The notes beneath the pieces were generated by a model, which was given only the letters and a program-made list of their open reading frames with translations, was not told where the DNA came from and did no database searches. A stretch of 64,000 nucleotides of DNA from Victivallales bacterium (GTDB taxonomy: Bacteria; Verrucomicrobiota; Lentisphaeria; Oligosphaerales; Oligosphaeraceae): NCBI GenBank assembly GCA_017617415.1, contig JAFZWH010000013.1:1-64000 (forward strand), written 5' to 3'. Shown piece after piece: positions 1 through 58,775 of this stretch (position 1 is the stretch's first letter; the number at the start of each line of letters is the position of its first letter). A program made the translations under genes and the position numbers.

Positions 1-35
1 GGTGAGAGGTTAGAGGTTAGAGGTGAGAGGTTAAA
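1..35. repeat. Heptamer array, GAGGTTA/GAGGTGA family
   Basis: Five 7-bp units in register (ggtgaga, ggttaga, ggttaga, ggtgaga, ggttaaa) at the window edge, just beyond the stop codon of the heparinase-like gene. The same unit family recurs near 26141 and, on the other strand, near 44051. The array may continue to the left of the window. Confidence 0.85.
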
Positions 36-57
36 GTTGAAGAGGGTAGAGGTTTTG

Positions 58-3000
58 TTATTTCCCTTGCCAAGTGCGGTCGTTACGTTGGAATTTGGGA
101 TAGTAGTCCGTGCCGGAACCAGCAGGAAGGTCGGTTGGCAGGAATTGGATTTGGTCAATGGCGCCATCTGGCCAGCGGAGAAGAACGCCATGGCCATTTG
201 CATCTGGCATCTTTTCCACGCCGGGACGGGTGTCCTCCGCATTTTTGAGCGGCACGAGGACCATCAGGAAGTGCGGGTCGTGAAGGCGTTCGGCGGTATG
301 CAGGAGCAGTCCATGCGTTTCGTGGGAGGTAGTCTCGAAGGTGGTTAGTTTCGTCTTCGCATTGGGCGAAGTCACTGGATAGACCGCCAGGCAAGCGGAC
401 GAGCCATTGTTGTTCCAGGGGACTCGTTCCAGCGGTGGCGTGCCGAGCGTGGCGTCCTCGGCGGTGAGGACTTGCCCGCCGTCTACCTTACCATCCAAAG
501 ACAAGGGCAGGGCGGTCTCCGCAGGAACCATCGCGAGGCGGAACAGCTGTGTCTGGGGTTCGCGGGCGTGCAGCGTGACCGCGATGTGCTCTCCTGCCTT
601 CAGGGGGTAACGCCGCGGCTGGGCGTCATTTCGGTGTTTCACTGGCGTCCAGCTTGGAGAGGCCGAGGAGTTGGTGTCCCAGATGGCGATATGGTCATTT
701 CCGATGGTGACGGCAAAACTGTCGGACCTGCCAGGGTCGGGACCTCCTGCGGCGGTCAGCCCACAGAAGACATACTCGCCGTCCGCCGATGCGACAAATT
801 CGAAATGCGCCTTGCCACCGGTCTGTCCCGCCAAACTGGTGAGAATGCTTTGGATGGCGGCAGGAGGGTGTGCGAGCCAGGCGCTCGGGTTGGAGGTGTC
901 CACCTCAAGGTAGCCAGGGAAATGCCATTGCCAGGTGAAATCGTGCAATGCGTCGTCGGCCTTTTGGATGTGGTCATAGACAACGAGGTAGGGCGGGAGG
1001 TCGCCGTCGGCGCGCACGAAGAGGAAGTGCCGTTCGGCGGCGGCGAGATTGCGTCCAGTGGGGACGGGGCGCTGCTGGCTGAAATCCAGATTCCACGCAT
1101 CTCGGGCATCCACGCGAATCCAGTCAATAAATGTATCATGGTGATAGCCAGTGATTTCTCCATTGCTATTGTTATGCCAGGAGATGGGCTGTCCCTCGCC
1201 GTCCACCAGCACGAGATTATGGGCGAAGGAACTGCCGCTTTTGCGGGAGTCGCCGTCATTGCCGTAGCCGCTGTCAATGAAGAAGTCCTGTCCGTAGGCG
1301 CGGAAGGTGAAGGAGCCCTTGTCGGCCTGGTCGTGTCCAGCGGCGTGGGGACCAGCCTCAACGGCGAGGTGGAGTGCATCGTGGTCAAAGCCGCCGTCAC
1401 GGGAAACCGCCAGCCCGCGTCCCCGGAAGAGCATTCCGGAGGGGAGAATGGCTTCGGGAGCGACAGTGACCGGGCATTCCTCAAAGAAAAGCAGATGGGC
1501 AAGCAGTTCGTGAGGCTGCAGGGTGCCCAGATCAACGGCGGCGCGGCCCTTTTCCCATACCCAGCCCATCACTTGGGCGAGTGCGCCGTAACTGAGCGTG
1601 CGTTCGCCTGCCGTCTCAGGGAAATGCGCCAAATAGCCAGCCGCGGAGAAGCGGTCTGGCGGAGCAGGGAGGCTTTCCCCTGGGCGTAGCGGGTCCGTGC
1701 GGGCGAGTTCGGCGAGGCGACCGCAGACGTAGTCATAGACGGGACAGCCCACGGGCGTGGCGTGGTTGCAGTCGGAGAGGTTGTTCCACAAGGGGCGGTT
1801 GGGGAGCATCTCGGCGGCCAGCCAGAGGGGTGCGAGTTGCCAGTTGGTCTCGCAGAAGAGGTCGCCGCGGTCCTGCTGGCGAAGGCATTCGGCGAACTCC
1901 AGTCCCGCACCAATGCCGTAGGAGAGGTAGGCGGGTCCTTCGTGTCCCGCGCCGTCCTGGTCAATTCCGAGGGTAAGGTAGTCTTTGAGATAGCGTCGGA
2001 AATGGAAGAGCAGGGCGTTTTCGGCGGTGGCGGTCTCGCCTTCCAGGGCGAGCATGGCCACGCCGGCGCAGCCGACCAGCCCAGGGCACCAGTTCCAGAC
2101 GCGATTCAGGGGATGGCCGCCCCACGCGCAGTTGTCCTTGCGGCTCTCGCGGTAGATTTCAAGGATGTGGCTTAGCAGGCATTGTTGGATCACGCGCTGT
2201 TCCTCCGGGGTGAGGAAGGCGTGGCACCAGTCGTAGCCGAAGGCAAGGGCGCGCACGAGAAAGGTTCGAGTGTAGTAGAAGCCCTGATTCAAGGCGGGGG
2301 AAGAGGCGGGCAGGGCGCGGGCCAAAGCCACAAGCGCCTGGGCGGCATGGCGGCTGAAGCGCTCGTCCCCGGTGATGAGCCCGACGGCCGCGAGGACCTC
2401 GATGGGACGCACTTGTTTGGTAAGGATGCCCTCGAAGGCCCCGCGTTGACGATGGGCGGGGAGTTTGGTGTCTCCCGCGAATTCCAGCAGTGGCTTGGCG
2501 GCATTCGGCGCATCGTAGGAAACAAGGTATTGCTCTGCGGACGCGAGGAGTTTTTCATAGACGAGTTGCGCGTCTCCGCCTGCGTGTGCCTTGGCTCGAA
2601 GGCGCGGGAGGGTCTCAGCGTTCAGAAGCAGCCGCGGATGCGGCATGGCGTCGGGGCGCGGCGTGGACAGGAGCAGTCGCTCCAGAGAGCGCTGTTCGAT
2701 GCGCAACGCGATGGCCGAGGCATTTGCTTGAGGAACCAGCGCCAGTTGATCAAGCCAGATGGTGGTCGGCTCTTCGGCGGCGAGGTCAACGAAGGTGAAC
2801 TGTAGGCGAGCTTTGTCATTCAAACGGCGTGGGGAGAAAGCGCTGCGGGCGTTCTGGGCAGGCTGAAAGCCGTCCCATGACAGGTAGAAGTCCACCCAGC
2901 CGCCTGTGCTATCCGAGAAGGTGCCGACGCGTTGCGTGTAATATTCCGTGGTGGAGGCGCCTGGAAGGAGCAGTGAGGCTTCCAGACGGCCTCGGCGGGC

Positions 3001-3243
3001 GTTGGTGCGGAAGCGTCCGTAGATTCCCGCATAATTGGCGGTGTCGGCGGGGAGGCCACGGGTAATCCATCCGAAGCCATGCTGAGCGGGGTCGATGGTC
3101 ACGCAAATACATTCCGGCGCTTCGGCAACCACCGTGGTGTTGTCCTTGGACGACCATTTGGCGTTGTCCAATGGCATGGAGAACTCCTGGGCAAGAAGCG
3201 CGGAGAGCAGGAGGAATCCGAAAATGGTCAGGAACTGGCGCAT
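58..3243 (-). CDS. Secreted heparinase II/III-like protein
   Basis: Predicted exported polysaccharide lyase-like protein of 1061 residues. The start is placed at an ATG that directly precedes a good signal peptide (MRQFLTIFGFLLLSALLA); an in-frame upstream start would add 31 residues without export character. No clear Shine-Dalgarno site is visible. Residues about 25-190 look like a carbohydrate-binding beta domain. From about 200 (HPRLLLNAETL) an alpha-helical barrel follows, with the CAWGGHPLNRVWNW block near 370. The heparinase II/III core lies near 631 (HAAGHDQADKGSF, then FIDSGYG). Family members cleave uronic-acid polysaccharides; the substrate cannot be told. It appears monocistronic. 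Confidence 0.85.
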   Translation of the reverse strand: MRQFLTIFGFLLLSALLAQEFSMPLDNAKWSSKDNTTVVAEAPECICVTIDPAQHGFGWITRGLPADTANYAGIYGRFRTNARRGRLEASLLLPGASTTEYYTQRVGTFSDSTGGWVDFYLSWDGFQPAQNARSAFSPRRLNDKARLQFTFVDLAAEEPTTIWLDQLALVPQANASAIALRIEQRSLERLLLSTPRPDAMPHPRLLLNAETLPRLRAKAHAGGDAQLVYEKLLASAEQYLVSYDAPNAAKPLLEFAGDTKLPAHRQRGAFEGILTKQVRPIEVLAAVGLITGDERFSRHAAQALVALARALPASSPALNQGFYYTRTFLVRALAFGYDWCHAFLTPEEQRVIQQCLLSHILEIYRESRKDNCAWGGHPLNRVWNWCPGLVGCAGVAMLALEGETATAENALLFHFRRYLKDYLTLGIDQDGAGHEGPAYLSYGIGAGLEFAECLRQQDRGDLFCETNWQLAPLWLAAEMLPNRPLWNNLSDCNHATPVGCPVYDYVCGRLAELARTDPLRPGESLPAPPDRFSAAGYLAHFPETAGERTLSYGALAQVMGWVWEKGRAAVDLGTLQPHELLAHLLFFEECPVTVAPEAILPSGMLFRGRGLAVSRDGGFDHDALHLAVEAGPHAAGHDQADKGSFTFRAYGQDFFIDSGYGNDGDSRKSGSSFAHNLVLVDGEGQPISWHNNSNGEITGYHHDTFIDWIRVDARDAWNLDFSQQRPVPTGRNLAAAERHFLFVRADGDLPPYLVVYDHIQKADDALHDFTWQWHFPGYLEVDTSNPSAWLAHPPAAIQSILTSLAGQTGGKAHFEFVASADGEYVFCGLTAAGGPDPGRSDSFAVTIGNDHIAIWDTNSSASPSWTPVKHRNDAQPRRYPLKAGEHIAVTLHAREPQTQLFRLAMVPAETALPLSLDGKVDGGQVLTAEDATLGTPPLERVPWNNNGSSACLAVYPVTSPNAKTKLTTFETTSHETHGLLLHTAERLHDPHFLMVLVPLKNAEDTRPGVEKMPDANGHGVLLRWPDGAIDQIQFLPTDLPAGSGTDYYPKFQRNDRTWQGK

Positions 3244-3408
3244 GCGAGAAGAAGATTGGAGAAATGTTTGACGGAACGTAGTTGATAGGCAGGGATTTTT
3301 ACCTTGCCAGCAGTTCAATTTGCCTGTGAATCGCATTTAACCACATACGAAAAGGCGCGGGGTCATGTTTGAAACAGTCGCCGTAAAGGCATTTTCGCAT
3401 GACGGGAG

Positions 3409-4224
3409 TCACTTTGCGTGGGGCTTTTTGCCTTGATAGAGTTGATTGATGAGGTCGAGGATTTTCTTTGGTGCGTCCACGTTGTCCATGCTCAGTTCGG
3501 CGTCGGCGGTGGCGGAGGTGCCGATGTGGATGTCGCCGATGTCGAGGAGTCGCTCCGTGATGTTCTGACGCAACCAGGTGGCGCGGATATCCTTGTGACG
3601 GACCTCGACTTCGTTGCGGGTGATGACGCCTTCGTCGAAGCGCAGACGATAGGTGGTGATGGTATAGACGGTGAAGATACGCCGGATGGCACGGGCGCAG
3701 AACCACAGAAAGTCCACGAAGAGCAGGAGCAGTCCGATGCGCAGCGCCCAGGCGGTGTTGGTCCTGGACTGAAGCCCCACATAAAGCATCAGGATGAGCA
3801 GGAGCCCGAAGAGGATGCCAGGGGGCAGCAGGATTTTCCAGGTGGAGTGGATGGTCAGCAGGACCTCCTCCGGTTCTTCGGTGTCACCAGATGGCACGGC
3901 GGATGACGTGGGGGCGGAGGACTTCGTGGAGGCACTGGCGGCGGTAGCAGAGGCTGATGCGGCTGGGGATGCAGTCACAGGCATAGTGTTGGGCGCGGGG
4001 ACCAGTGGCGCACCACGACCATCGAGGAACTCGCCACAGTATCGACATTTGATGGCCCCCGCCTTGATGGTCTCCAGGCAGTAGGGGCAGGTCTTGGTGT
4101 CCAGCGGCGCGTCTGGCGGCTGCGGGAAGAAGGTCTTGCCACAGTTCGGGCAGGTGGTCTCGTGCCCTTCAATTCGCTCGGCGGGCTCGAAGTCAGTATG
4201 GCAGGCAGGACAGGTTGTTTTCAT
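3409..4224 (-). CDS. Zinc-ribbon and PH-domain membrane protein
   Basis: A 271-residue protein with two N-terminal zinc ribbons: C5/C8/C25/C28 and C46/C49/C60/C63. A low-complexity Ala/Ser linker (about 75-105) follows, then two hydrophobic helices (ILLPPGILFGLLLILMLYVG and ALRIGLLLLFVDFLWF). The C-terminal bacterial PH (bPH2/YdbS-like) domain has TTYRLRFDEGVITR and the IRATWLRQNITERLLDIG region. These domains are usually membrane-associated, with unknown ligands. The start ATG is followed upstream, after 2 bp, by repeat element A, so its promoter must lie within or beyond that element. No Shine-Dalgarno site is visible. Confidence 0.75.
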   Translation of the reverse strand: MKTTCPACHTDFEPAERIEGHETTCPNCGKTFFPQPPDAPLDTKTCPYCLETIKAGAIKCRYCGEFLDGRGAPLVPAPNTMPVTASPAASASATAASASTKSSAPTSSAVPSGDTEEPEEVLLTIHSTWKILLPPGILFGLLLILMLYVGLQSRTNTAWALRIGLLLLFVDFLWFCARAIRRIFTVYTITTYRLRFDEGVITRNEVEVRHKDIRATWLRQNITERLLDIGDIHIGTSATADAELSMDNVDAPKKILDLINQLYQGKKPHAK

Positions 4225-4226
4225 AA

Positions 4227-4374
4227 GTTATTTATTATAAAATCGTTATGAAGAAATGATAGGAAAACTAAGATTCCGTTGGAAAGTGCGAAAAGCAATT
4301 TGCAAGTTGCACAAAGGGTGGTTAAATTAGCAGTGGGACACGCGGGTGGGGGAACCCCCACCCTATAGGAAAAG
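4227..4374 (+). repeat. Promoter-bearing interspersed repeat, copy A
   Basis: One of three related copies (others near 12997 and 49909). It shares gttatttattat and then GAAAACTAAGATTCCGTT with copy C. A promoter-like pair follows: TTGCAA (4300-4305), 17 bp, TAAATT (4323-4328). It ends in a perfect G/C-rich inverted repeat, GGGTGGGGG (4344-4352) and CCCCCACCC (4355-4363). A heptamer array begins about 40 bp later. The same order, box then G-rich hairpin then heptamers, is seen in the other copies. Confidence 0.7.
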
Positions 4375-4403
4375 GCTCGAAACCCTGAGAGGTCTGGGGC
4401 TGA

Positions 4404-4627
4404 GTCCTGAATCTTGAGACTTGGGACCTGAGTCCTGGGTCCTGAGTCCTGAATCTTGAGATTTGGGACCTGGGTCCTGAGACCTGAGTCCTGGGTCCTG
4501 AGACCTGAGGCTTGAGATTTGGGACCTGAGTCCTGAGACTTAGTCTCAGGTTCCGCCCGTCAGGTCTCAGGCCTGAAGTCCCAGGTCCCGTCAGTCATGT
4601 CTCAGGTCTGAAGTCCGAGTCCCGTGG
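4404..4627. repeat. Heptamer array with internal strand switch, GACCTGA family
   Basis: Thirty-two consecutive 7-bp units remain in perfect register. Units from 4404 to 4543 read GtCCTGA/GACCTGA/GATTTGG. From 4544 units read TCTCAGG/TCCCAGG, the reverse complement of the first type, still on the 7-bp frame. The switch point is an inverted repeat (CCTGAGACT / AGTCTCAGG, 4532-4550), so the transcript could fold into a long hairpin. The array fills the space between the small membrane protein gene and repeat element A; no coding potential was found. Confidence 0.9.
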
Positions 4628-4633
4628 CGCTTA

Positions 4634-5140
4634 TCATTCCGTTGCACAGCCGGACAGCGTGGACAAGAGGAGCGCACCGGCGAAGGTCACGACATAGACC
4701 CAGTTGTGCTTTGCGTGGAAACGAAAGGGCCAGGCGACTGCGAGCACGATGGGCGCAATCAGCAGAAAGAGCACACCTGCCCACCATCCCCAATGGCCAA
4801 AGCACCCAATGTATGTGGCGACAAATCCCTCAATGGCAAGCAGTGAAAAGGCGCAGGTCCCCCAAAGCAAGTAACTCTGGCTCCGCGACTTTGGTGCATC
4901 CAATGGCGTGGGAGGCAGACGTCGCCAATGTCGGATGGCGAAGAACAACGCGATTAGGGCGCAGACGACGACTTGAATCCATCCCAAAATGTCCGGGGTG
5001 TTTTCGATACGGACATTCATGCCAATTGATAGGAAAAGTTCAACGAAACCCATCGCCACCAACATGAGGACGGTGCCGTAGAAGGCCAACACAAGGTGCG
5101 CCACGAGGGACAACGCGCGGTGGATAGTTTCGAATTTCAT
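4634..5140 (-). CDS. Small multi-pass membrane protein, unknown function
   Basis: A 168-residue hydrophobic protein with about five predicted transmembrane segments (for example LVLAFYGTVLMLVAMGFVEL, IQVVVCALIALFFAI, LLAIEGFVATYIG, WAGVLFLLIAPIVLAVAW and VVTFAGALLLSTLSG). The start was moved to the internal ATG at MKFETIHRALS because the upstream extension (MLLHHCDIF...) is atypical; neither start has a clear Shine-Dalgarno site. The stop lies 7 bp from the heptamer array. I do not recognise a family. Confidence 0.6.
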   Translation of the reverse strand: MKFETIHRALSLVAHLVLAFYGTVLMLVAMGFVELFLSIGMNVRIENTPDILGWIQVVVCALIALFFAIRHWRRLPPTPLDAPKSRSQSYLLWGTCAFSLLAIEGFVATYIGCFGHWGWWAGVLFLLIAPIVLAVAWPFRFHAKHNWVYVVTFAGALLLSTLSGCATE

Positions 5141-5306
5141 CGGCACAGGGGTGAATGGAAAAATGTCGCAATGATGCAACAGCATATACTTTAAATGATA
5201 AAGTACAAAATGACGCTCTTAATCAAAAATACGGACTGGCATAGATGAAAAGTCACCATGTGGGGCGTGGCTTCATTCGTCTTCATCTGCAAAACATCAC
5301 ATCCAA

Positions 5307-6410: not shown

Positions 6411-6469
6411 GATTTTCTTTTCCGCCAGTCGGGAGTCATAGGATTTTCGGTGATTTTGTGTCATTTGCC

Positions 6470-6497: not shown

Positions 6498-6534
6498 ACA
6501 TAAGTTGCCAAAAACAACGACAAATCATACTTGA

Positions 6535-13111: not shown

Positions 13112-13200
13112 GCGTCCATCGTCTGCCGTCTGGCGTCCCGGCCCTGCCGTCCGTCGTCTGCCGTCTGGCGTCCCGGCCCTGACCATGCTTGCCGTCCGGC
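13112..13200. repeat. Heptamer array, GTCCGAC/GTCTGCC family
   Basis: 7-bp units (tcgtctg, ccgtctg, gcgtccc, ggccctg, ccgtccg) form a 35-bp higher-order block, followed by a second copy of its first four units. Degenerate units continue to about 13200. It lies between copy B and the start of the next operon. Confidence 0.85.
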
Positions 13201-19377: not shown

Positions 19378-19390
19378 GACTTATCTTTGG

Positions 19391-19516
19391 GACCTGAAAT
19401 TAGGGACCAGAGACCTGAGACCTGAGGCCAGAGACCTGGGACCAGAGACCTGGGACCAGAGACCTGAGACCTGGGACCTGAAATTAGGGACCTGGGACCT
19501 GGGACCTGAGACCTGA
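19391..19516. repeat. Heptamer array, GACCTGA family
   Basis: Eighteen 7-bp units in unbroken register (gacctga, gaccaga, gacctgg, with aattagg twice). It begins 13 bp after the DUF445 stop codon. From 19517 to about 19572 a different, looser set follows (gctagcataactagcatggct, ending ggggctagacc), also with GCTAG-type inverted repeats. Confidence 0.9.
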
Positions 19517-26140: not shown

Positions 26141-26172
26141 AGGTTAGCGGTTAGAGGTTAGAGGTTAGAGGT
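26141..26172. repeat. Heptamer array, GAGGTTA family
   Basis: Units aggttag, cggttag, aggttag, aggttag, aggtgtt in register, 3 bp from the start of the small basic frame. Same family as 1-35. Confidence 0.85.
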
Positions 26173-26776: not shown

Positions 26777-27711
26777 TGGAAATGACAATTATGCCGCAAA
26801 TCCTCGACTCTTTCCAACCACTGACGTTGACGGATGTCCCGCAACTTGCCAAGTTTCTGCGCGCTTCAAAGGAACGCAGCTGCGAGTTCTCCATCGCGAA
26901 TCTCTATCTGTGGAGCTTTTCTTACCACATTCGCTGGCAGGTTTTTAATAATCGACTCTATCTGCATACGGAAAACCGCGAGGAACCCGAAGACGCACTG
27001 ATGGTCGTGGTCCCCGAAACGGTTCCTGACCCGCCCGCCAAGGAACTCCTGGCTTTCTCCGAAGAAATGCAGAAACACGGTCATACTGGACGGATCCAGC
27101 AACTCAGGGAGAATTTTGTCCAGAATTGTCCAGAATTGTCCAAATGGTTTGAAGTCAAGCAGATGGACGAGGAGGTCGCGGAATATGTCTATCGTCTGGA
27201 CAATTTGGCGCTGCTGACCGGCGAGAGGTATTCCAAGAAGCGCAATCTCATCAAGCATTTTGCGCGCAATTTCCCGACAGCGACAAGCCGACCGTTGTGC
27301 GAGGCCGACTTGCCGGCGGTGCTGGCGATGTCCGAGGAGTGGCTGGATGGACATCCAGAGCGTGAATCACGTCATCTCCAGGAGGAGCTTAGCGCATTGC
27401 GGCATCTTCAAGATGCTCCACTGGAGTACTTTGGGCTGTTGGGGCAGGGAATCTTTCTGGACGGCAAGCTCATTGCCTACGAGTTCTGCAGCCCTGTGGC
27501 TGGGGGGATGTGGACGGAGCATTTCGAGAAGGCATTGAAGGACTTCAATGGCGCTGCTCAGGCACTGAATCAATTCAGCGCTCAGGCTTTGCAGGGGCGC
27601 TGCGAGTGGCTGAACCGGGAGCAGGATTTGGGTTCGCCGGGGCTGCGTCAGGCCAAGCAGTCCTATCACCCGGAATACCTCCTGCGCAACTATGATTTGT
27701 TTCCAAGGTAG
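26776..27711 (+). CDS. DUF2156 (phosphatidylglycerol lysyltransferase-like) protein
   Basis: A 311-residue protein of the double-GNAT DUF2156 group. Typical blocks: CEFSIANLYLWSF near the N-terminus, YVYRLDNLALLTGERYSKKRNLIKHF in the middle and KQSYHPEYLLRNYDL at the end. The group resembles the catalytic half of MprF but lacks its flippase helices; the acceptor is not known here. Two further in-frame ATG codons lie within 15 bp. Residues near 117 are coded by three exact 10-bp repeats. Coupled to the GNAT gene upstream and close to the transporter gene downstream. Confidence 0.82.
   Translation: MEMTIMPQILDSFQPLTLTDVPQLAKFLRASKERSCEFSIANLYLWSFSYHIRWQVFNNRLYLHTENREEPEDALMVVVPETVPDPPAKELLAFSEEMQKHGHTGRIQQLRENFVQNCPELSKWFEVKQMDEEVAEYVYRLDNLALLTGERYSKKRNLIKHFARNFPTATSRPLCEADLPAVLAMSEEWLDGHPERESRHLQEELSALRHLQDAPLEYFGLLGQGIFLDGKLIAYEFCSPVAGGMWTEHFEKALKDFNGAAQALNQFSAQALQGRCEWLNREQDLGSPGLRQAKQSYHPEYLLRNYDLFPR
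27116..27141 (+). repeat. Three 10-bp TTGTCC repeats inside a coding region
   Basis: TTGTCC at 27116, 27126 and 27136 separated by AGAA. The same 10-bp layout occurs upstream of genes at 37120 and 44901. Here it is translated within the DUF2156 protein. Confidence 0.7.
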
Positions 27712-29263: not shown

Positions 29264-29267
29264 GAAA

Positions 29268-29288
29268 ATGAGGAATGAGGAATGAGGA
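29268..29288. repeat. Heptamer array, ATGAGGA family
   Basis: Three exact 7-bp units (atgagga) 5 bp upstream of the TetR start, within its 5' leader. Confidence 0.8.
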
Positions 29289-29462
29289 ACCGCAGGGGTT
29301 TGGGGTGGGGTGCCACCCGTAGAATTGTAAGTGCCAATAAGATAGCACAACTGGGGTGTTTTTCCCAGAAGAATGCGACAATTTGTTCATAGAATGCGCC
29401 ATTTGCGGGACATTTTGGCACACTTTGCAAATTCAAGCCCGCAATTCCCCTATCAGAGATTT

Positions 29463-32000: not shown

Positions 32001-32488
32001 TGGGACAGTCCTGGACAATTCTGTTTTTCGGTGTGGTTCTTGTGTTGCTGGGCGTCCTGACGATGACGCTTTGCAGCTTGGTGAAGAACCGTCTGATGAA
32101 GCAGGTTCTGCTAAGCCGTCCGGTCACGGTGCCTCGTTCGGTGGGGCAGCTTTGGACGGAGGCCGGGCTGGGCGTGATTCTCACCAGTGCGGTCTTCTTC
32201 TTCTCAATGCTCTGCTTTGCCAGCGAACTGGCGTTGCGCATCTCGTTTCCGATCGCGTATGGTGCTAGCGTGCTGTGTGGCATTGGCTGCTTCATCCGCT
32301 CACGGGAAGGGCTGAATGCTTTGGGACTGACCAAGGACGAGGGGGCGAACCCCGAACCTGTCGCGGTCTTTCCGGAGGAACGCCGGTTCCTTGTCATCTT
32401 GGCGTTCTTTTCGGTTGCGCTTACCGCATTTCTGGCTGGGTTGCTCACCGTGGGCTGGGCACTCTGGAGTTTAAAGTCTAAAGTCTAA
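32000..32488 (+). CDS. Small membrane protein, unknown function
   Basis: A 162-residue protein with about four hydrophobic helices (ILFFGVVLVLLGVLTMTLCS, GVILTSAVFFFSMLCFA, FPIAYGASVLCGIGCF and FLVILAFFSVALTAFLAGLL). Its ATG overlaps the obgE stop. The last residues (SLKSKV and the stop) are coded by the heptamer array TAAAGTC, so the natural C-terminus may have been altered by that array. No family recognised. Confidence 0.7.
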   Translation: MGQSWTILFFGVVLVLLGVLTMTLCSLVKNRLMKQVLLSRPVTVPRSVGQLWTEAGLGVILTSAVFFFSMLCFASELALRISFPIAYGASVLCGIGCFIRSREGLNALGLTKDEGANPEPVAVFPEERRFLVILAFFSVALTAFLAGLLTVGWALWSLKSKV

Positions 32489-32577
32489 AGTCTAAAGTTT
32501 TGGGGACTGAGGACGGAAGACTGAAGATTTGGAAGTTGGATCTTTTCGCCTTTAACCTTTAACCTTTAACCTTTTAA
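32472..32577. repeat. Heptamer arrays TAAAGTC and CCTTTAA
   Basis: Three exact taaagtc units (32472-32492) and taaagtt, then seven looser 7-bp units, then cctttaa three times (32549-32569) and ccttttaa. The stop codon of the membrane protein lies in the third unit. CCTTTAA begins about 80 bp after the array starts, still in register. Confidence 0.85.
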
Positions 32578-32585: not shown

Positions 32586-33221
32586 ATGTACGTTGGTCGT
32601 ATTGTTGCCGTCGGGCGCACCCCGCAGGGATTTGGCGCCGCTCTTTATCGCGTTTCCTCTCGTTCCTTCCCGAACCGCATGTCGGTGCAGTTGAAGGACT
32701 CTATCGCGATTGTTCCGAAGCCGGGCTTTGAAACAGACATCCAGAAGAACCCCTACATCGCCTACAACTGCCTGCGCTTTGCCAATGGACTGGCGATTGT
32801 CTCCAACGGCTCCCAGACCGATCCCGTCACCGAAAAGATCGCCACCGGAATGGCGCCGCGTGACGCACTGGCGTCTGTGATGCTTGCGATGGACTACGAA
32901 CACGACAGCCTGGATACCCCGCGCATCACGGGAGTGGTGACACCGAATGGCGAGAAGGGCTGGCTGGCCATCGTGCGCAAGGACGCATTGATCGTGCGGG
33001 AGTTTGCCCTCCAGCCGGGCGAGTGCTTCTACGTCTCTACCTACGAGCGCAACGTTCCCGGTCCGGAACAGCGTTGCGGAGCCTTCGTCGCCGAAGATCC
33101 CGAGGCCGCCTGCGATTACATCTTGGGTGGTGGCGGAGTCTTCGCGGACTTCGAGCGACCGATTTCCGCCGCATGTGCGGTCGCCACGGCGGACGGGACG
33201 TTCCGCAGTGCGTTTAAGTAA
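32586..33221 (+). CDS. purO: IMP cyclohydrolase, PurO type
   Basis: A 211-residue enzyme closing the IMP ring from FAICAR in purine synthesis. It matches the archaeal-type stand-alone cyclohydrolase rather than bacterial PurH: YVGRIVAVGRTPQGFGAALYR, VSSRSFPNR, KNPYIAYNCLRFANG, NGSQTD and DYEHDSLDTPRITGVV. In most bacteria PurH does this step, so the gene is probably a transfer or an old PVC trait. Heptamer arrays flank it on both sides. Confidence 0.88.
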   Translation: MYVGRIVAVGRTPQGFGAALYRVSSRSFPNRMSVQLKDSIAIVPKPGFETDIQKNPYIAYNCLRFANGLAIVSNGSQTDPVTEKIATGMAPRDALASVMLAMDYEHDSLDTPRITGVVTPNGEKGWLAIVRKDALIVREFALQPGECFYVSTYERNVPGPEQRCGAFVAEDPEAACDYILGGGGVFADFERPISAACAVATADGTFRSAFK

Positions 33222-33254
33222 TTAGCAATTAGCAATTAGCAATTGGGATTAGCA
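33221..33254. repeat. Heptamer array, ATTAGCA family
   Basis: Three exact attagca units (33221-33241), a 6-bp interruption, then one more. The first base is the last base of the purO stop codon. Confidence 0.85.
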
Positions 33255-33279
33255 AGAAGTTGCTAAGTTAAAGCAAAGT

Positions 33280-42100: not shown

Positions 42101-42180
42101 TTACCCCGCACGACGCGGCTCCCTGGAATGACGGCTACTGCTTCGTGAAACAAGGCGTGAAAACAATTCGTAATTCGTAA
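39148..42180 (+). CDS. Glycoside hydrolase, GH106-like
   Basis: A 1010-residue protein without a signal peptide. The N-terminal part shows NRPVPFWSWNDQLEANECVR, then IELMHEQGIGGFFMHARGG and YDEDGWPSGFGGG, which match the barrel of enzymes related to GH106 alpha-L-rhamnosidases. The C-terminal third has beta-rich sugar-binding-like domains (VRFDAVYASVLEVAVNGQRI, LKPGANTIRLKL). Being cytoplasmic, it probably acts on imported oligosaccharides. The last codons and the stop lie in an AATTCGT heptamer array. Confidence 0.72.
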   Translation: MPKTTLELAKNPPSRNRPVPFWSWNDQLEANECVRQIELMHEQGIGGFFMHARGGLLTDYLSKEWFEVTEACIKAAERLGMNAWAYDEDGWPSGFGGGLVNGKGIEYQQKYLRIKEICDILEIQAIKHLIAVYDKHGQLLLNPDSLPAEGGLAVYFDVNPYYVDTLDGKVIAEFLHSTHEKYFDVLPQPEREAMRGFFTDEPQISRDGTPWSFILEAEYRQAYGDELLPRLPQLFYEIGDDYRVTRHRFWLLVTRLFSENFMHQIQKWCHAHGWQLTGHLVLEESMHYQICSNGIALPHYEYFDIPGMDNLGRYFTWVTCPLGLFSAAAQTGHRQILSETFALCGWAVSFADLKWLAQWQFVHGVNFLCQHLEGYSLRGIRKRDYPASLFIHQPWWDYYKPFNDYFSRLGVLLEAGDVHYRTLLIQPGATAFTNYNDRDNGKLDEYDQAFHALTDLLEASQVNHHYGDEELMRRHGKVADGELVIGAQSYAVVILPKLSNLGEVQYTMLKQFAEQGGRIYGLRNDLEQGFWVAGVDHSGDTLLAKVQWFDSAEALVAALPAECRVVNLRTPEGRALPDLNATSRSFADFDGKPAVLYYIVNNNREKPFEAVVDIPAKGLERYDVATGKVVPVAYHREGDVCVLEHRFEAVGDLVLLARDYEAPAAVAEVPVAATLPLGDAWQVVGSTENLLTLDHCRCEADGKELFAHEYVLTIHDELLKFERALPIVLEYAFEVDEQFALGTPVDLLIEHPERQRILVNGVEVSNVSHGFFRDKAFERIAIGPQLKRGRNVIRLEGEFFQTEETYECIRRGKIFESEKNKLSYHSEVEAVYLAGDFGVATPGSWQELTADSTRYTGTFALTTPSKAVQGDDVGPCGRPFFSGVIELEQTVELTDAETAQPTAVRFDAVYASVLEVAVNGQRIGRLTMPDYELTIPSGVLKPGANTIRLKLVTSLRNMLGPHHLQEGDSHSVCPYHFYKTPGGVFTPHDAAPWNDGYCFVKQGVKTIRNS

Positions 42181-42190
42181 TTCGTAATTG
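42165..42190. repeat. Heptamer array, AATTCGT family
   Basis: Three exact aattcgt units plus aattg. It overlaps the last four codons and the stop (42178-42180) of the glycosidase gene. Confidence 0.85.
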
Positions 42191-44002: not shown

Positions 44003-44050
44003 CAGGACCTGATTTAAACCTCTCTGCTGGCGTGGGCGCCAGCAGTACTC

Positions 44051-44078
44051 CCACCTCCCACCTCTCACCTCTCACCTT
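44051..44078. repeat. Heptamer array, GAGGTGA family on the minus strand
   Basis: Units ccacctc, ccacctc, tcacctc, tcacctt, exactly the reverse complement of the family at 1-35, ending 3 bp before the next start codon and therefore occupying its Shine-Dalgarno region. Confidence 0.85.
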
Positions 44079-46196: not shown

Positions 46197-46213
46197 ATCA
46201 GGGGAGAGCTGCG

Positions 46214-46320
46214 TCGTCTGACGTCTGTCGTCTGTCGTCCCGTCCGCCGTCCGCCGTCTGTCGTCCCGCCTGACGTCTGTCGTCTGTCGTCTGACGTCCC
46301 GCCTGACGTCTGACGTCCGT
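46214..46320. repeat. Heptamer array, GTCTGAC family
   Basis: About 14 units (gtctgac, gtctgtc, gtccgcc, gtcccgc) with 5-bp interruptions (ctgac). It starts 18 bp after the aldolase stop. Confidence 0.88.
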
Positions 46321-50084: not shown

Positions 50085-50174
50085 GTCTATCGTCTGTCGT
50101 CCGACGTCCCGCCCTGACGTCCGACGTCCGTCGTCTGACGTCCGACGTCCGTCGTCTGTCGTCCGACGTCCCGC
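50085..50174. repeat. Heptamer array, GTCCGAC family
   Basis: Twelve units (gtctatc, gtctgtc, gtccgac, gtccgtc, gtctgac, gtcccgc) with one 6-bp interruption (cctgac). It ends 14 bp before the EamA transporter stop. Confidence 0.9.
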
Positions 50175-53969: not shown

Positions 53970-53976
53970 GTTAAAA

Positions 53977-54133
53977 GACGTCCGACGTCCGACGTCCCGG
54001 CCACCCTGACGTCCGACGTCCGTCGTCCGACGTCCGACGCCCCGCCCCGACGTCCGACGTCCGTCGTCCGACGTCCCGGCCACCCTGACGTCCGACGTCT
54101 GTCGTCCGACGTCCGCCGTCCGCCGTCCCGCCC
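53977..54133. repeat. Longest GTCCGAC-family heptamer array
   Basis: About 20 units (gacgtcc, gtccgac, gtccgtc) with recurring breaks (cccggccaccct and cccgcccc). GACGTC palindromes occur repeatedly. It starts 7 bp after the mannosidase stop and runs into a GC hairpin with a T-run. Confidence 0.9.
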
Positions 54134-54155
54134 TGCGGTTTCGGCGGCGTTTTTC
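54121..54155 (+). terminator. Probable terminator at the end of the array
   Basis: CGCCG and CGGCGGCG can pair across ccgccctgcggttt, followed by TTTTTCTT. It would end the mannosidase transcript after the array. Confidence 0.5.
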
Positions 54156-54370
54156 TTGTCATCGGCGACAGAACGCCGTGAATGCCCCGGAGAGTTTTGC
54201 AATTGCCTCAGATAGCAGGCATATCGTGCCAGCATATAATCCTGGATGGCATGCTGTGAACCGCCTCCCAGACAGACCATTTTCCTGACACTAGGAAAAT
54301 GTTTATCAACTTGGGCACCAACGCTTTGGTTTCCTTCATGGGGCTAAGGGGCGAGATATTTCGTCCGCTA
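54156..54370. other. Non-coding stretch
   Basis: No gene or clear signal seen between the terminator-like hairpin and the stop of the ATPase gene. Confidence 0.5.
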
Positions 54371-55657
54371 TTATGGGCACAATGCAGAAATGGGAATGAC
54401 ATGGACACCATCCTTACGGGTGTAAGCCATTTTGCCTCCAGTGACCACCATCAGCAGGTCTGGCAATCGGAGCGGGCATTGCTTTTCATTCTGATTGTAT
54501 TTCTGAATCTGTCTGGTGATTCCCACCAGATGCTTTGCTCCTTCCTCAATTTCTGAAGAACCAAGTTTGACTTCAATCAAGGCATAGCGACCATCCCGCA
54601 GATGCAACACGGCATCTGCCTCCAGACCATATCGGTCACGGTAATAGGAAAGTTTTCCTCCCAGCGGCGAGGAATATGCCCTCAAGTCACGTAGCACAAG
54701 GCTCTCAAAGAGAAAGCCGAAGGTTTTGAAATCCTGCAAAAAGAACTCTGGCTTGACGCCAAATGCCGCAACTGCGATGGACGGATCGCAGAGGCCGCGC
54801 TTTTTGGAGGCTCGGATGTCCGTGGCACTGCGGATGGCCGGACACCAGGCATCGATGTCTTCAACCACAAACAACTTGCGCAATGCATCAAGATATGAGT
54901 CCACCGTTGCCAAGGAGGTGTCCCGAACCGAAAGAATGTCTTTGCGAATACTGGCAGTGGTTGCCAGGGTCGAAATGTTGCGGGCATACGATTTTAACAG
55001 CGTAAGTGCCAATGACGGGTCACGGGTGACACCATCCACCTTCGAGATGTCCACTTCAACGACCTGCGTCAAGTAGTCTTGGGCAATGAACAATTGGGCG
55101 TCGTCTCCATTGGCGGAAAGCGATGACGGCCAGCCACCGCGGCAGGTCGCAAATATCAGTTCCTCAATGGACAATTGACCACTCGCGCCGCTGACCGAGG
55201 TCCCTGGCGAGGCAAACAGTTCGCGCAAAGAAACCTGTCCTGATGACTCTTGAGATTCAAATAACGACATGGTGGACATCGCCAGGCGGGAGATTCGCCC
55301 AGTCCCAGTATGTTTGGTCTTCTGGTCATCGACCACCACCGAACCAGTCAGGATAAATTGTCCTTTCGCACCACTGCGGTCCACCGCCACACGCACTGCA
55401 TCCCACAGTACCGGAGCCAGTTGCCATTCGTCAATCAGTCGTGGCGTAGTTCCACGCAACAACAACGATGGTTGAGTTGCGGCCATCTTCAGATAGCCTT
55501 CCTGTAAATCGGGGTCTTGAAGTTCCAAGACGCTCTTCGCCTGTTGCTTGGCCGTAGTGGTCTTCCCGCACCATTTGGGGCCAACGATAATCGTTGCACC
55601 AATGGAACGAAGTCGAAGTGCCAATTCTTGATCCGCAATGCGTGGCATGTATTTCAT
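54371..55657 (-). CDS. AAA ATPase with DUF4143 domain
   Basis: A 428-residue protein. The N-terminal ATPase domain has Walker A GPKWCGKTT (26-34) and LIDEWQ as Walker B-like. The C-terminal DUF4143 domain has a nuclease-like motif, LEADAVLHLRDGRYALIEVK (D, then E-V-K). Members are common in host-associated and anaerobic bacteria; the function is unproven, with suggestions of defence or nutrient roles. A Shine-Dalgarno (AGGAGG) is 6 bp upstream. The 23-bp repeats lie just beyond its promoter region. Confidence 0.88.
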   Translation of the reverse strand: MKYMPRIADQELALRLRSIGATIIVGPKWCGKTTTAKQQAKSVLELQDPDLQEGYLKMAATQPSLLLRGTTPRLIDEWQLAPVLWDAVRVAVDRSGAKGQFILTGSVVVDDQKTKHTGTGRISRLAMSTMSLFESQESSGQVSLRELFASPGTSVSGASGQLSIEELIFATCRGGWPSSLSANGDDAQLFIAQDYLTQVVEVDISKVDGVTRDPSLALTLLKSYARNISTLATTASIRKDILSVRDTSLATVDSYLDALRKLFVVEDIDAWCPAIRSATDIRASKKRGLCDPSIAVAAFGVKPEFFLQDFKTFGFLFESLVLRDLRAYSSPLGGKLSYYRDRYGLEADAVLHLRDGRYALIEVKLGSSEIEEGAKHLVGITRQIQKYNQNEKQCPLRLPDLLMVVTGGKMAYTRKDGVHVIPISALCP

Positions 55658-55681
55658 TTTTACCTCCTGTCCAAAATATAA

Positions 55682-55687
55682 TATAAT
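55682..55687 (+). promoter_or_regulatory. TATAAT box before the 23-bp repeats
   Basis: A perfect -10-like hexamer, 6 bp before the first ATG of the repeats on the plus strand, inside an A/T-rich stretch. No good -35 is seen. A minus-strand promoter for the ATPase gene may share this stretch. Confidence 0.35.
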
Positions 55688-55693
55688 ACTGTC

Positions 55694-55813
55694 ATGAAGA
55701 TTTGGTGGATTTCGTTATGAAGATTTGGTGGATTTCGTTATGAAGATTTGGTGGATTTCGTTATGAAGATTTGGTGGATTTCGTTATGAAGATCTGGTGG
55801 ATTTTGTTATGAA
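55694..55813 (+). repeat. Five tandem 23-bp repeats with overlapping micro-frames
   Basis: Unit atgaagatttggtggatttc plus gtt at 55694, 55717, 55740, 55763 and 55786, with a partial copy from 55809. Each unit starts with ATG and reads MKIWWISL (last full copy MKIWWILL), and its TGA stop overlaps the next ATG as ATGA. The last two copies carry agatct instead of agattt. The partial copy runs into a heptamer array. Confidence 0.85.
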
Positions 55814-55890
55814 GATCTGGGACCAGAGCCCCGACGCCCCGCCCTGACGTCCGACGTCCGCCGTCCGACGTCCGCCGTCCGACGTCCCAC
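55814..55890. repeat. Hybrid heptamer array
   Basis: Starts with GACCTGG-family units (gatctgg, gaccaga) and then changes, without loss of register, to GTCCGAC-family units (gtccgac, gtccgcc, repeated). It begins inside the partial 23-bp repeat. Confidence 0.85.
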
Positions 55891-56040
55891 CCTTGAAACC
55901 AGGAGCTTGGCTGAACCAGAAAACAAGGAGCTGACAGGAGGGGAGTCAGAGTTTACTGTGATTTGGAGAGTGAGTTTCCCTCTTTCTTCTCGTAAAAGTC
56001 CACATTTTGGCATAAAAATCCACATTTTTCAGCGCATCAC

Positions 56041-56082
56041 TTGAAAAATCGTCAAAAGCTGTGTATAATTATATGCACAGCT
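56041..56082 (+). promoter_or_regulatory. Promoter and operator of the GntR/LacI-type regulator
   Basis: TTGAAA (56041-56046), 17 bp, TATAAT (56064-56069). A near-perfect palindrome, AGCTGTG and CACAGCT arms around the A/T core (56057-56082), covers the -10 box. This fits a repressor dimer site, probably for autoregulation. Confidence 0.7.
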
Positions 56083-56142
56083 AAGAAACCACGCGGCGGT
56101 GTTCCGCCGAAACGAGGACAACGCAGTAGTTAAGATTTGCCC

Positions 56143-57210
56143 ATGGCCAAGATTCTGAAATATGATTCCATTCGGATGAAGATTCTGCACTATATCGCGG
56201 AGAACAATCTTCGTCCGGGAGACCGTCTGCCCTCCGTGCGCCAGCTCATCCATCAGGTGGACGGCAGCATGATATCGCTGCGGCGTGCCATGAAGGAGCT
56301 GGAGTTTGACGGCATCGTCGAGTTGCGCTCCGGCGGACAGAACCCCGGGAGCTACCTGAAGCGCAGCATCTACAGCGACAAATGGGATTTCTATATCCTG
56401 TACATCAACATCTGCCGGGGGAACGAGAAGTCGGGTGAGCCGCTTGAGCAGCAGCTGGGCATCGTCACCTCCTACTTCAACAGCCGCGGGCTGGGGGTCA
56501 AGTTCTTCAGCGTTTCATCCATCGAGGATGACATCATCCTGAAGGCCCACAACGCCTCCGCGATACTTCTGGACGGTTGGTTTGACGACAAAATCGTCGC
56601 CCAGCTGGAGACGCTCCGTCTGCCCATGATACTCATTGGCAACCGGAAAGCAAGCCACAAGAAAGAGACCGCGACGGTCATGCGCGACAATGTTCAGGCG
56701 GCCAGCTTGGCCTTCCGCCAATGCGTGGCCGACGGCAGGCGGAAGATCGCGCTGCTTCGAGGCGAGGACGACTATTATTCCTATAATGAATACGAGGAGG
56801 GGTACCGTCAGGCCGCGAAAGAGCATGGCATGGCTCCGATTATCGGATGCAGCCCCAGGGAAAAGGGCCTCAGGGGATTCCTGGAGGAATTCATGCCGGG
56901 CAACACCGACATCGACGGGTGGCTCCTGTCCCACACCATGTTTGACCGCGTCATCTCGTGGTACTGGCGCAATCATGTCACGGCGCAGCCGGAATTCATT
57001 TTCCTGGACCATACGCCGGTTTTCTGTGATGTCATCGACAGCCCGTATATGCGGTGGATCACCTTCGACTCCATCGGACTGACCGCCGCCGGCCAACTGA
57101 TGGACGGGCTGCTGAACAACCGTCCGCCCCAATCCAGGCTGTTGGCCCCACGACTGGTGCGGGACGAAGATTTTTGGACTCTGCCGCCAATTCAAGGGGC
57201 AGGAGAATGA
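56143..57210 (+). CDS. GntR-HTH regulator with a LacI-type sugar-binding domain
   Basis: A 355-residue regulator of the AraR type. Residues 1-75 are a GntR winged helix (ILHYIAENNLRPGDRLPSVR, then RRAMKELEFDGIVELRSGG). Residues about 85-345 resemble the periplasmic-binding-protein fold of LacI (WDFYILYINICRG, ALLRGEDDYYSY, YEEGYRQAAKEHG). It should bind a sugar and repress the operon until induced. The TTG 6 bp upstream is an alternative start. A promoter with a palindromic operator lies about 60 bp upstream. The phosphatase gene starts 4 bp after the stop. Confidence 0.85.
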   Translation: MAKILKYDSIRMKILHYIAENNLRPGDRLPSVRQLIHQVDGSMISLRRAMKELEFDGIVELRSGGQNPGSYLKRSIYSDKWDFYILYINICRGNEKSGEPLEQQLGIVTSYFNSRGLGVKFFSVSSIEDDIILKAHNASAILLDGWFDDKIVAQLETLRLPMILIGNRKASHKKETATVMRDNVQAASLAFRQCVADGRRKIALLRGEDDYYSYNEYEEGYRQAAKEHGMAPIIGCSPREKGLRGFLEEFMPGNTDIDGWLLSHTMFDRVISWYWRNHVTAQPEFIFLDHTPVFCDVIDSPYMRWITFDSIGLTAAGQLMDGLLNNRPPQSRLLAPRLVRDEDFWTLPPIQGAGE

Positions 57211-57214
57211 AGCC

Positions 57215-58744
57215 ATGGCCGAAAGGAACTCAAAACCAAGTGACTGTTCGCCATTGACCGAGCTGTCAAAGCTGCCGCAGGTTCGCCTGGAGGATCCAAG
57301 GCAGGTGGTGATCATGTGGCAGACCGCACGCTCCTGGCCACTGGGGGGCATCCGCCTCGTCAGAAAAGGTGCGCCGGACGACGATGTCCGCGAAATCTGG
57401 ATGGAGCATGACGACGAGTTGCACTACTATCGTGGCTACGACCACTGGGTGACCCTTACGGGATTGGCGGACGGCGCGTCCTACGAGTATCTCCTGCTGG
57501 CGCGGGACGCGGACGGCCAGGTCCGGCAGCTGGTCGAGACGCCGTTCGCCTTCGATTATCCGGACTATCATGTCAAGGTGGAAATCACCGGCGGGCCGTT
57601 TGTCACCAATCCGGGAACGGCTTGCATGAGCGTGGTGTGGCGCACCAGCCTTCCCTCCGGCGCCGCCGTCGATGTGCGGAAGACTGGCACGGACGAGGTC
57701 CGCCGCGTGCTGCGCGGCGATACGGGCATCCTGTCCGTCCATGACCTTCACCATGTCGTGCATCTGACCCGGCTTGAGGAAGGCACGTCGTATGACTACC
57801 GGCCGGTGATTTTCGACTCGCGGACGGGCGCCTTCCTCCCGGCGGGAGAGTGGCGGACCTTCACCACGCTCTCCAAGGCAAAGAAGCGCTTCCGCGCACT
57901 CTATATGGCCGACCTGCATGGCGACCGGCTCAAGCTGGCGCAGATGCTGGAGCGGTTTGACGCCGCCTCCTGTGATTTCGTCCTCTACGGCGGTGACATG
58001 GTGTGGAGTGCGATGCACGCGCCAGAGGCCGAGAACCTGTGGGATGAGTTCATCCACACCTCCGTCGAGCATTTCGCGACCACGGTGCCGATGGTCATGG
58101 TCCGCGGGAACCACGAGGGCGGCGGACTCTATGCGGATTCCTACGCCAAAGTCTTCCATTCGCCGGAGGGCAACACGTACCATGCGTTCCGCTGCGGTGA
58201 TTTCCTCTTCGTGTGCCTGGACTCCGGCGACATCTGTCCCGCCGAACGGGATTGCTTCCCCGAGTTCTTCGCGCGGCAGCGGGAATGGCTGAAGCGCGTC
58301 TTGGACTCGGAGGAGGCGCGGACCGCGCGGTTCCGGATCGCGGTTGTCCACGCCCCCACGCATGGCATGCCCGATGGCGAAATCAACGAACGGATGCGGC
58401 GGTATTTCCTCGACCTCCTCAATGACCCGTCGCCCGAACGGCGCTTCCAGCTCTGCCTCGGCGGCCATGACCACCGATGCTTCCGATGCAACGCGGGTGA
58501 GGGCTTCAGCCGTCTGGCACAGCCCCTTCCGGGCGAAGTCATGAAATTCGGCGACGTTTTCCTCTACACGGTGATGCTCAACGGCGGACCGCTGCCGCTT
58601 GACGGCAAATGGGAATACACCGTCACGGAAATTATCGGCGCGGAGGATAAAGTGCAAGTCACCATGCTGGATGGCGTGACCGGCGAGCAAATCGACGCCA
58701 TCGCCATCGACGCGGCCGGAAAGGTGACGGAGCTTGCCACATAG
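57215..58744 (+). CDS. Fibronectin-III-like and metallophosphoesterase protein
   Basis: A 509-residue protein with no signal peptide. The N-terminal 215 residues hold one or two fibronectin III/purple acid phosphatase-type beta domains. The C-terminal part is a calcineurin-like phosphoesterase with ADLHGD, YGGDMVWS, VRGNHEGGG, VVHAPTHG and GGHDHRCF, giving all metal ligands. The layout is that of purple acid phosphatase-like enzymes; the substrate is unknown. CAGGAG lies 9 bp before the ATG. It forms an operon with the regulator. Confidence 0.85.
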   Translation: MAERNSKPSDCSPLTELSKLPQVRLEDPRQVVIMWQTARSWPLGGIRLVRKGAPDDDVREIWMEHDDELHYYRGYDHWVTLTGLADGASYEYLLLARDADGQVRQLVETPFAFDYPDYHVKVEITGGPFVTNPGTACMSVVWRTSLPSGAAVDVRKTGTDEVRRVLRGDTGILSVHDLHHVVHLTRLEEGTSYDYRPVIFDSRTGAFLPAGEWRTFTTLSKAKKRFRALYMADLHGDRLKLAQMLERFDAASCDFVLYGGDMVWSAMHAPEAENLWDEFIHTSVEHFATTVPMVMVRGNHEGGGLYADSYAKVFHSPEGNTYHAFRCGDFLFVCLDSGDICPAERDCFPEFFARQREWLKRVLDSEEARTARFRIAVVHAPTHGMPDGEINERMRRYFLDLLNDPSPERRFQLCLGGHDHRCFRCNAGEGFSRLAQPLPGEVMKFGDVFLYTVMLNGGPLPLDGKWEYTVTEIIGAEDKVQVTMLDGVTGEQIDAIAIDAAGKVTELAT

Positions 58745-58754
58745 TCTGGAGTCT

Positions 58755-58775
58755 TCTAAATTTCAAATCTCAAAT
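58755..58775. repeat. Short heptamer array, CAAATCT family
   Basis: Units tctaaat, ttcaaat, ctcaaat in register, just after the phosphatase stop. Short, so counted only because of the consistent pattern elsewhere. Confidence 0.5.

What the first reader, a model, noticed from the sequence alone, without database searches (positions are those of the whole stretch)
1..58775. Many intergenic tandem arrays share a 7-bp period but not a sequence
Seen directly: at least 15 arrays of 7-bp units lie between genes or at their ends, in at least nine different sequence families (GAGGTTA, GACCTGA, GTCCGAC, TAAAGTC, CCTTTAA, ATTAGCA, AATTCGT, ATGAGGA, CAAATCT). Locations include 1, 4404, 13112, 19391, 26141, 29268, 32472, 33221, 42165, 44051, 46214, 50085, 53977, 55814 and 58755. 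Established: heptanucleotide repeats (STRRs) are known in cyanobacteria, where one or few sequences dominate. Inference: a common period with varying sequence points to a process that copies in 7-nt steps from a local seed, rather than a mobile repeat. The mechanism and purpose are unknown.
Basis: partly seen in the sequence, partly recalled or inferred. Interest (0 to 1): 0.85.

Follow-up and report, generated by a model that had tools for sequence, protein, structure and literature searches.

The report
Rumen bacterium's seven-base DNA repeat arrays
The DNA between genes of this uncultured rumen bacterium (order Victivallales) is dotted with arrays of repeated seven-letter words from a small shared vocabulary, and tiny hairpin-shaped repeats have inserted into some of them, a pairing previously described, to my knowledge, only in cyanobacteria.

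Summary
Confirmed: the 7-bp arrays are real, mostly intergenic and far beyond chance. In 849 kb of this Victivallales genome the same detector finds 93 period-7 arrays, against 3 of period 6, 2 of period 8 and 25 of period 9. The 'local seed' inference is not supported. 139 arrays from four congeneric species use only 37 unit classes (about 129 expected from independent seeds). The same units recur at dozens of unlinked sites, and the classes form a single-substitution network. Nor is 7 universal: 9-bp arrays share these genomes and dominate in one genus of the family. Orthologous sites show exact whole-unit gain or loss, replacement of the unit along a whole array, and arrays present or absent. 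New here: AACCTCT-type arrays host a ~24-nt palindrome (55 copies, 2-4 in congeners) and AATGAGG arrays border a second palindrome (33 copies). Related species carry the arrays without the inserts. This matches cyanobacterial small dispersed repeats embedded in heptamer arrays (recalled from memory). Most likely mechanism: ordinary tandem-array turnover plus spread of array sequence between sites, with small hairpin elements using arrays as landing sites. Reverse transcriptase was not found in three array-bearing relatives. Why 7 (or 9) remains open.

The parts
1..54 (+). 7-bp array, class AACCTCT (GGTTAGA); contig C56 begins inside it
   Evidence: TRF, 7.6 copies; contig-end test
4400..4539 (+). 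7-bp array, class ACCTGAG/ACTCAGG, with 42- and 56-bp higher-order repeats
   Evidence: TRF
4542..4625 (-). 35-bp-unit array carrying TCAGGTC-type units, inverted relative to 4400-4539
   Evidence: TRF; 12 of 14 inverted match
13112..13181 (+). degenerate 7-bp array, GACGTCC/CGTCTGC family, 35-bp higher-order unit
   Evidence: TRF
19388..19516 (+). 7-bp array GACCTGA with 14- and 21-bp registers
   Evidence: TRF; own-genome pattern search
26141..26172 (+). 7-bp array AGGTTAG; absent at the orthologous gap in G013, G014 and G015; same unit at many other sites
29267..29289 (+). 7-bp array AATGAGG; at least 6 copies in G014, absent in G013
29290..29335 (+). diverged copy of palindromic dispersed element B inserted at the end of the AATGAGG array; absent from the orthologous G014 site
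32468..32498 (+). 7-bp array TAAAGTC over a gene's stop codon
32549..32574 (+). 7-bp array CCTTTAA; the orthologous G013 gap has AATTCGT and CATTCCA arrays instead
33220..33255 (+). 7-bp array AATTAGC at a gene's stop; G014 has degenerate GAGTCCC repeats there, G013 and G015 none
42165..42189 (+). 7-bp array AATTCGT spanning a gene's stop codon; conserved in G013 and G015, exactly one unit (7 bp) shorter in G013
44024..44048 (+). palindromic dispersed element A (CTGCTGGCGTGGGCGCCAGCAGTAC) embedded in the array; absent in G013, G014 and G015
44048..44077 (+). 7-bp array CTCACCT/CCCACCT; orthologous arrays use CTAACCT (G013) and TTAACCT (G015)
46213..46318 (+). degenerate 7-bp array CGTCTGA/GACGTCC; absent at the G014 orthologous gap
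50090..50171 (+). 7-bp array CGTCCGA, 21-bp register
   Evidence: TRF
53977..54128 (+). 7-bp array GACGTCC with 38-bp higher-order unit
   Evidence: TRF
55831..55887 (+). 7-bp array GACGTCC, exact 14-bp register
   Evidence: TRF; exact run
58758..58776 (+). weak 7-bp array AAATCTC, 2.7 copies
   Evidence: TRF

Best explanation
These are lineage-specific families of short tandem repeats in intergenic DNA. Shown: (1) the arrays draw on a small vocabulary shared across the genome and genus; (2) at one conserved site they differ by exactly one unit between species, and a neighbouring 9-bp array differs in copy number; (3) the unit can be replaced along a whole array while the site is kept; (4) small palindromic elements (A, ~24 nt; B, ~40 nt) lie in or beside particular array families and are absent from the corresponding arrays of congeners. 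Inferred: arrays lengthen and shorten by replication slippage or unequal recombination between units. A mutated unit can take over an array this way, giving the single-substitution network. New arrays are seeded mainly from existing ones, by template switching, gene conversion or carriage next to a mobile palindrome, which keeps the vocabulary small. Coding DNA rarely tolerates 7-bp steps, so arrays persist between genes. The palindromes are probably non-autonomous mobile elements that use the arrays as permissive landing sites. What favours a 7-bp period (9 in some relatives) is unknown.
For: Period-7 peak and intergenic location. 37 classes among 139 arrays against ~129 expected from local seeds. 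30 single-substitution edges among 32 classes against 10.6 +/- 3.2 in letter-shuffled sets, maximum 21 of 200. One-unit difference at 42165 with flanks otherwise aligned. Whole-array unit replacement at 44051 in G000, G013 and G015. 9-bp array in the same gap strongly expanded in G014. Same site, different unit at 32472-32574. Vocabulary is lineage-bound: AATTAGC arrays in 8 of 198 class genomes, all in three genera of one family. Element A: 55 copies in G000, 2-4 in congeners; 9 of 20 sampled copies within 15 bp of a 7-bp array against 3.7% of noncoding positions. Array-with/array-without-element comparisons at 44024 and at L189:16801/16857 against G014 L208, and at 29290 against G014.
Against: Slippage alone does not predict a 7-over-6-and-8 bias, nor a shared vocabulary; the seeding step is inferred, not seen. 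Strain-level length variation could not be tested (one genome per species). Some comparisons show whole arrays gained or lost with surrounding sequence too diverged to see the event. Element A in the window has a 22-bp core and the flanking array also differs from congeners, so it is not a perfectly clean insertion.
Confidence: 0.6

Rival explanations
1. The arrays are carried and spread by the small palindromic elements (REP-like, moved by a RAYT/Y1 transposase): the heptamers are part of, or left behind by, the mobile unit.
For: Elements A and B sit in or beside specific array families. Y1_Tnp hits in 22 of 29 family genomes including G000. One G000 protein resembles REP-associated tyrosine transposase NF047646 (69.1 bits, below the 80-bit cut-off), and a B-like core lies a few hundred bases from its gene.
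Against: Most arrays have no palindrome next to them. Congeners with the same arrays have only 2-4 copies of A. Orthologous arrays exist without the element, so arrays appear older. Y1_Tnp was not found in G006 and G026, both of which have 7-bp arrays. The B-like core near the transposase gene belongs to a longer TIR element, and the other four related genes showed none.
Confidence: 0.2
2. The arrays are binding sites for a regulator (RNA- or DNA-binding), kept by selection, as MacGregor suggested for TAACTGA repeats in Beggiatoaceae (PMC4679880).
For: Arrays lie near gene starts and stops; a limited vocabulary; in genus g9 AATTAGC arrays form inverted pairs folding into long stems.
Against: Arrays near starts and stops are about equally frequent (36 against 30). 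The pyrimidine bias on the coding strand is also present in array-free gaps (19% pyrimidine-rich against 4% purine-rich). No clear stop-codon excess. Arrays and units are often not conserved at orthologous gaps.
Confidence: 0.12
3. One reading: a process copies DNA in 7-nt steps from a local seed (for example reverse transcriptase or terminal transferase).
For: Strong single period with several sequences.
Against: Shared vocabulary; 9-bp arrays in the same genomes and the same gap; RVT_1 not found in array-bearing G019, G020 and G027.
Confidence: 0.04
4. Assembly artefact of the metagenome bins.
For: Contig ends are enriched in arrays.
Against: Orthologous arrays in independently assembled species; two finished cyanobacterial plasmids show the same period-7 peak.
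Confidence: 0.02

Closest known systems
Intergenic tandem heptanucleotide repeats of bacteria (cyanobacterial STRRs; long SSRs of Mrazek 2007; 'tandem heptamer repeats' of Mori 2018, PMC6344855)
   Same: Head-to-tail 7-bp units, intergenic, several units per genome, variable copy number, no known function; detected with the same method in two cyanobacterial plasmids.
   Different: Host is Lentisphaeria; a larger, mutation-connected vocabulary; 9-bp arrays are a second component and dominate in one genus.
Small dispersed repeats (SDRs) of Nostoc (Elhai 2008; recalled from memory, cited as ref. 43 in PMC3116915)
   Same: 20-odd-nt hairpin sequences, dispersed, intergenic, embedded in tandem heptamer arrays; recent copies.
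   Different: Different sequence and phylum; RNA-mediated movement untested.
TAACTGA repeats of Beggiatoaceae (PMC4679880)
   Same: Intergenic heptamer direct repeats, indels in 7-nt steps in related cyanobacteria, contigs ending in repeats.
   Different: Essentially one unit, mostly just upstream of start codons; here many units, no start-site preference.
REP/REPIN elements with RAYT transposases (PMC3116915, PMC3733652)
   Same: Short palindromes in tens of copies; a RAYT-like gene in the genome; element B contains GTAG next to its stem.
   Different: In B the GTAG follows the stem on the strand as read; A lacks it; no consistent linkage to the RAYT-like genes.

Membership tests
Bacterial tandem heptanucleotide repeats (STRR/long SSR) | Head-to-tail 7-bp units in excess over neighbouring periods | tested here: met
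   93 against 3 and 2 for periods 6 and 8
Bacterial tandem heptanucleotide repeats (STRR/long SSR) | Mainly intergenic | tested here: met
   110 of 139 at least half noncoding; gene calls are my own heuristic
Bacterial tandem heptanucleotide repeats (STRR/long SSR) | Same units recur at many sites in a genome | tested here: met
Bacterial tandem heptanucleotide repeats (STRR/long SSR) | Copy number varies in whole units between close relatives | tested here: met
   42165: one unit fewer in G013; between species only, strains not available
Small dispersed repeats (Elhai) | 20-odd-nt dispersed sequence with predicted hairpin | tested here: met
   Element A: 55 copies; 9-bp stem, -10.9 kcal/mol, z -5.2
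Small dispersed repeats (Elhai) | Embedded in tandem heptamer arrays | tested here: met
Small dispersed repeats (Elhai) | Evidence of recent mobility (site with and without element) | tested here: met
   Two loci for A (44024; L189:16801/16857) and one for B (29290)
Small dispersed repeats (Elhai) | Movement through an RNA intermediate | not testable with these tools
   No experiment; RVT_1 single hit in G000
REP/RAYT | GTAG (or variant) tag at one end of the palindrome | tested here: inconclusive
   B has GTAG after its stem; A does not
REP/RAYT | Palindrome flanks a RAYT gene | tested here: not met
   Only one of five related genes has a B-like core nearby, inside a longer TIR element
RT-templated repeats | Reverse transcriptase present wherever arrays are | tested here: not met
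   RVT_1 not found in G019, G020, G027, which have 7-bp arrays (G027 pooled with G026) or are congeneric with array-bearing genomes; bins are 93-96% complete

The most novel reading that the evidence does not exclude
Tandem heptamer arrays are specific docking sites for ~24-nt hairpin mobile elements, a partnership that arose separately in cyanobacteria and Lentisphaeria; each element family prefers one heptamer family and inserts at a preferred phase of the unit, and such insertion helps spread the array sequence.
Probability: 0.35. Interest if true: 0.72.

Novelty: new member of a known kind. Interest (0 to 1): 0.55.

Why it matters
Heptamer repeats are described as the most abundant tandem repeats in intergenic DNA of a wide range of prokaryotes, with no clear clue to their function (PMC6344855). 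This family offers a comparative handle: closely related genera with 7-bp or 9-bp arrays, congeners in which the same site keeps an array but changes its unit, and one species where a tiny hairpin element has recently multiplied inside one array family. That allows the questions 'what sets the period', 'how do arrays reach new sites' and 'how do ~24-nt elements move' to be tested with long-read genomes of relatives.

Tried and rejected
Local seed: rejected by class counts. Reverse transcriptase as maker: not consistent across the family. Hairpin-forming inverted array pairs as a general feature: no excess in genus g1 (9 sites against 8 in control flanks), though seen in G019. Stop-codon function: 0.82 of arrays against 0.66 +/- 0.11 for shuffled units, weak. 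Strand-specific (mRNA) function: the orientation bias is no stronger than that of array-free gaps. Clustering of arrays: 16 close pairs against 11.8 expected, not notable. Association of arrays with contig ends as an artefact sign: reinterpreted. Exact insertion site of element A: removing the 21-bp core restores 7-bp phase best (0.49-0.50 against 0.23 control), but junctions vary, so no target duplication is claimed.
Full report
Source. The window is part of contig C56 (86.5 kb) of a 3.2-Mb, 176-contig metagenome-assembled genome. A conserved ObgE protein places it next to Victivallales bins from goat abomasum and sheep rumen (96-99% protein identity). I call the window's genome G000. Congeners are G013, G014 and G015. 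The family has 29 genomes in 12 genera.

Observation. All fifteen reported arrays are found by Tandem Repeats Finder. Exact runs of period 7 stand out in the window and do not occur in Markov copies of it. In 849 kb of G000 a single detector with a fixed threshold gives, for periods 6, 7, 8, 9 and 10: 3, 93, 2, 25 and 1 arrays. With TRF score at least 46, noncoding DNA in the first 605 kb holds 32 period-7 arrays, 7 of period 9 and 1 of period 8. Genes were called with my own hexamer-score ORF caller, so coding/noncoding figures are approximate.

The period is not universal. In G010, a single-contig genome of the same family, the same detector gives 0 arrays of period 7, 30 of period 9, 11 of period 8 and 7 of period 10 in 260 kb. 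In the gap around window 44 kb a 9-bp unit (GTCCCGGAT type) is present as a long array in G014, a shorter one in G015 and remnants in G013 and G000, right beside the 7-bp array.

Vocabulary. 139 period-7 arrays in G000, G013, G014 and G015 fall into 37 classes after allowing rotation and reverse complement. Independent intergenic 7-mers as seeds would give about 129 (minimum 115 in 500 trials), and the commonest class would appear 2-3 times instead of 21. For the noncoding arrays, 32 classes have 30 single-substitution links against 10.6 +/- 3.2 for letter-shuffled classes. Searches of congeners with window DNA return the AGGTTAG, CCTTTAA, AATTAGC and AATGAGG arrays at dozens of unlinked places. 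AATTAGC arrays occur in 8 of 198 genomes of the class, all in three genera of this family. The vocabulary is therefore inherited within lineages and shared between sites.

Orthologous sites. At 42165 the AATTCGT array spanning a stop codon is conserved in three species and is exactly one unit shorter in G013. At 44051 the array is CTCACCT/CCCACCT in G000, CTAACCT in G013 and mostly TTAACCT in G015. At 33221 G000 has AATTAGC, G014 degenerate GAGTCCC repeats, and G013 and G015 nothing similar. At 29267 G014 has more AATGAGG copies and G013 none. At 32472-32574 G013 has AATTCGT and CATTCCA arrays where G000 has TAAAGTC and CCTTTAA.

Embedded palindromes. Comparing array flanks revealed shared sequence at unlinked sites. 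Element A, CTGCTGGCGnGGCGCCAGCAGTAC, sits inside AACCTCT/ACCTCTC arrays, twice in one array at L189. Allowing two mismatches, G000 has 55 copies, G013 2, G014 4, G015 3. It folds into a 9-bp stem. Of 20 sampled copies, 9 lie within 15 bp of a 7-bp array against 3.7% of noncoding positions. Element B, around GGGGGC...GCCCCCGTAGAATTGTAGGGTC, has 33 copies in G000 and 1-2 in congeners and typically follows AATGAGG repeats. Congeners carry arrays without the element at 44024, at L189:16801/16857 and, for B, at 29290. The arrays therefore appear older than the palindromes.

Who moves them is open. Y1 transposases are common in the family and one G000 protein resembles the REP-associated type below its cut-off, but its gene and four relatives are not consistently flanked by A or B. 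RVT_1 is found in 15 of 29 genomes and not in G019, G020 or G027; G019 and G020 have 7-bp arrays, and so does the pooled G026/G027 sample.

Function. I found no evidence of one. Arrays are about as often near stops as near starts; strand bias is no stronger than that of other gaps; stop codons are not clearly enriched; no general inverted pairing exists in this genus. In G019, however, two AATTAGC sites are inverted pairs that fold into long stems, and five further pairs are seen in coordinates.

Literature. Mori et al. [quoted passage not shown] MacGregor (PMC4679880) reports TAACTGA arrays, 7-nt indels between Cyanothece strains, mixed heptamers in Microcystis, contigs ending in repeats, and attributes to Mrazek 2007 the idea that 7 nt is the polymerase contact length. 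Rehm et al. (PMC4692102) describe intergenic heptamers in Xanthomonas and Nostoc. From memory, not read here: Elhai 2008 described 21-27-nt SDR elements in Nostoc embedded in tandem heptamers. My scan of two cyanobacterial plasmids gives 6 and 13 period-7 arrays in 200 kb each.

Conclusion. The arrays belong to a known, unexplained kind of bacterial repeat. The new points are the host group, the shared mutation-linked vocabulary, the coexistence and lineage switch with 9-bp arrays, and the two palindromic elements with sites present and absent between species. The steps shown are array turnover between species and recent insertion of palindromes; seeding between sites and the cause of the period are inference or unknown.

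Noticed in passing
window 55694-55820: A 23-bp-unit array, 5.5 copies, 98% matches, directly before the 7-bp array at 55831.
   Followed up: no
window 4400-4625: A GACCTGA-type array followed at once by an array in the opposite orientation, able to form a long imperfect hairpin.
   Followed up: partly
L039 ~11304, L194 ~1149, L204 ~295, L124 ~18805: A ~115-bp element with terminal inverted repeats (GTTCCCC...GGTACC ... GGTACC...GGGGAAC) carrying a core like element B; looks like a MITE, and one copy lies a few hundred bases from a RAYT-like gene.
   Followed up: partly
L161 4993-5081 and 17945-18074 (G019): AATTAGC arrays as head-to-head inverted pairs predicted to fold into long stems; further pairs seen in coordinates on contigs C6, C21, C22, C54 and C89.
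   Followed up: partly
L098-L100, L147-L156 (G010): Intergenic arrays of period 9 (GATCCGTCC family), 8 (CGCGAAGG) and 10 (TGCCGTCGAT family) instead of 7.
   Followed up: partly
G134, another family of the class: The control pattern read backwards (CGATTAA x3) matched 8 times, suggesting that this genome has its own heptamer arrays.
   Followed up: no
L045 6998-7334 and 1-168: Long arrays of 42-47-bp units in G000.
   Followed up: no
window 27116-27142: Exact 10-bp tandem repeat (TTGTCCAGAA x2.7).
   Followed up: no
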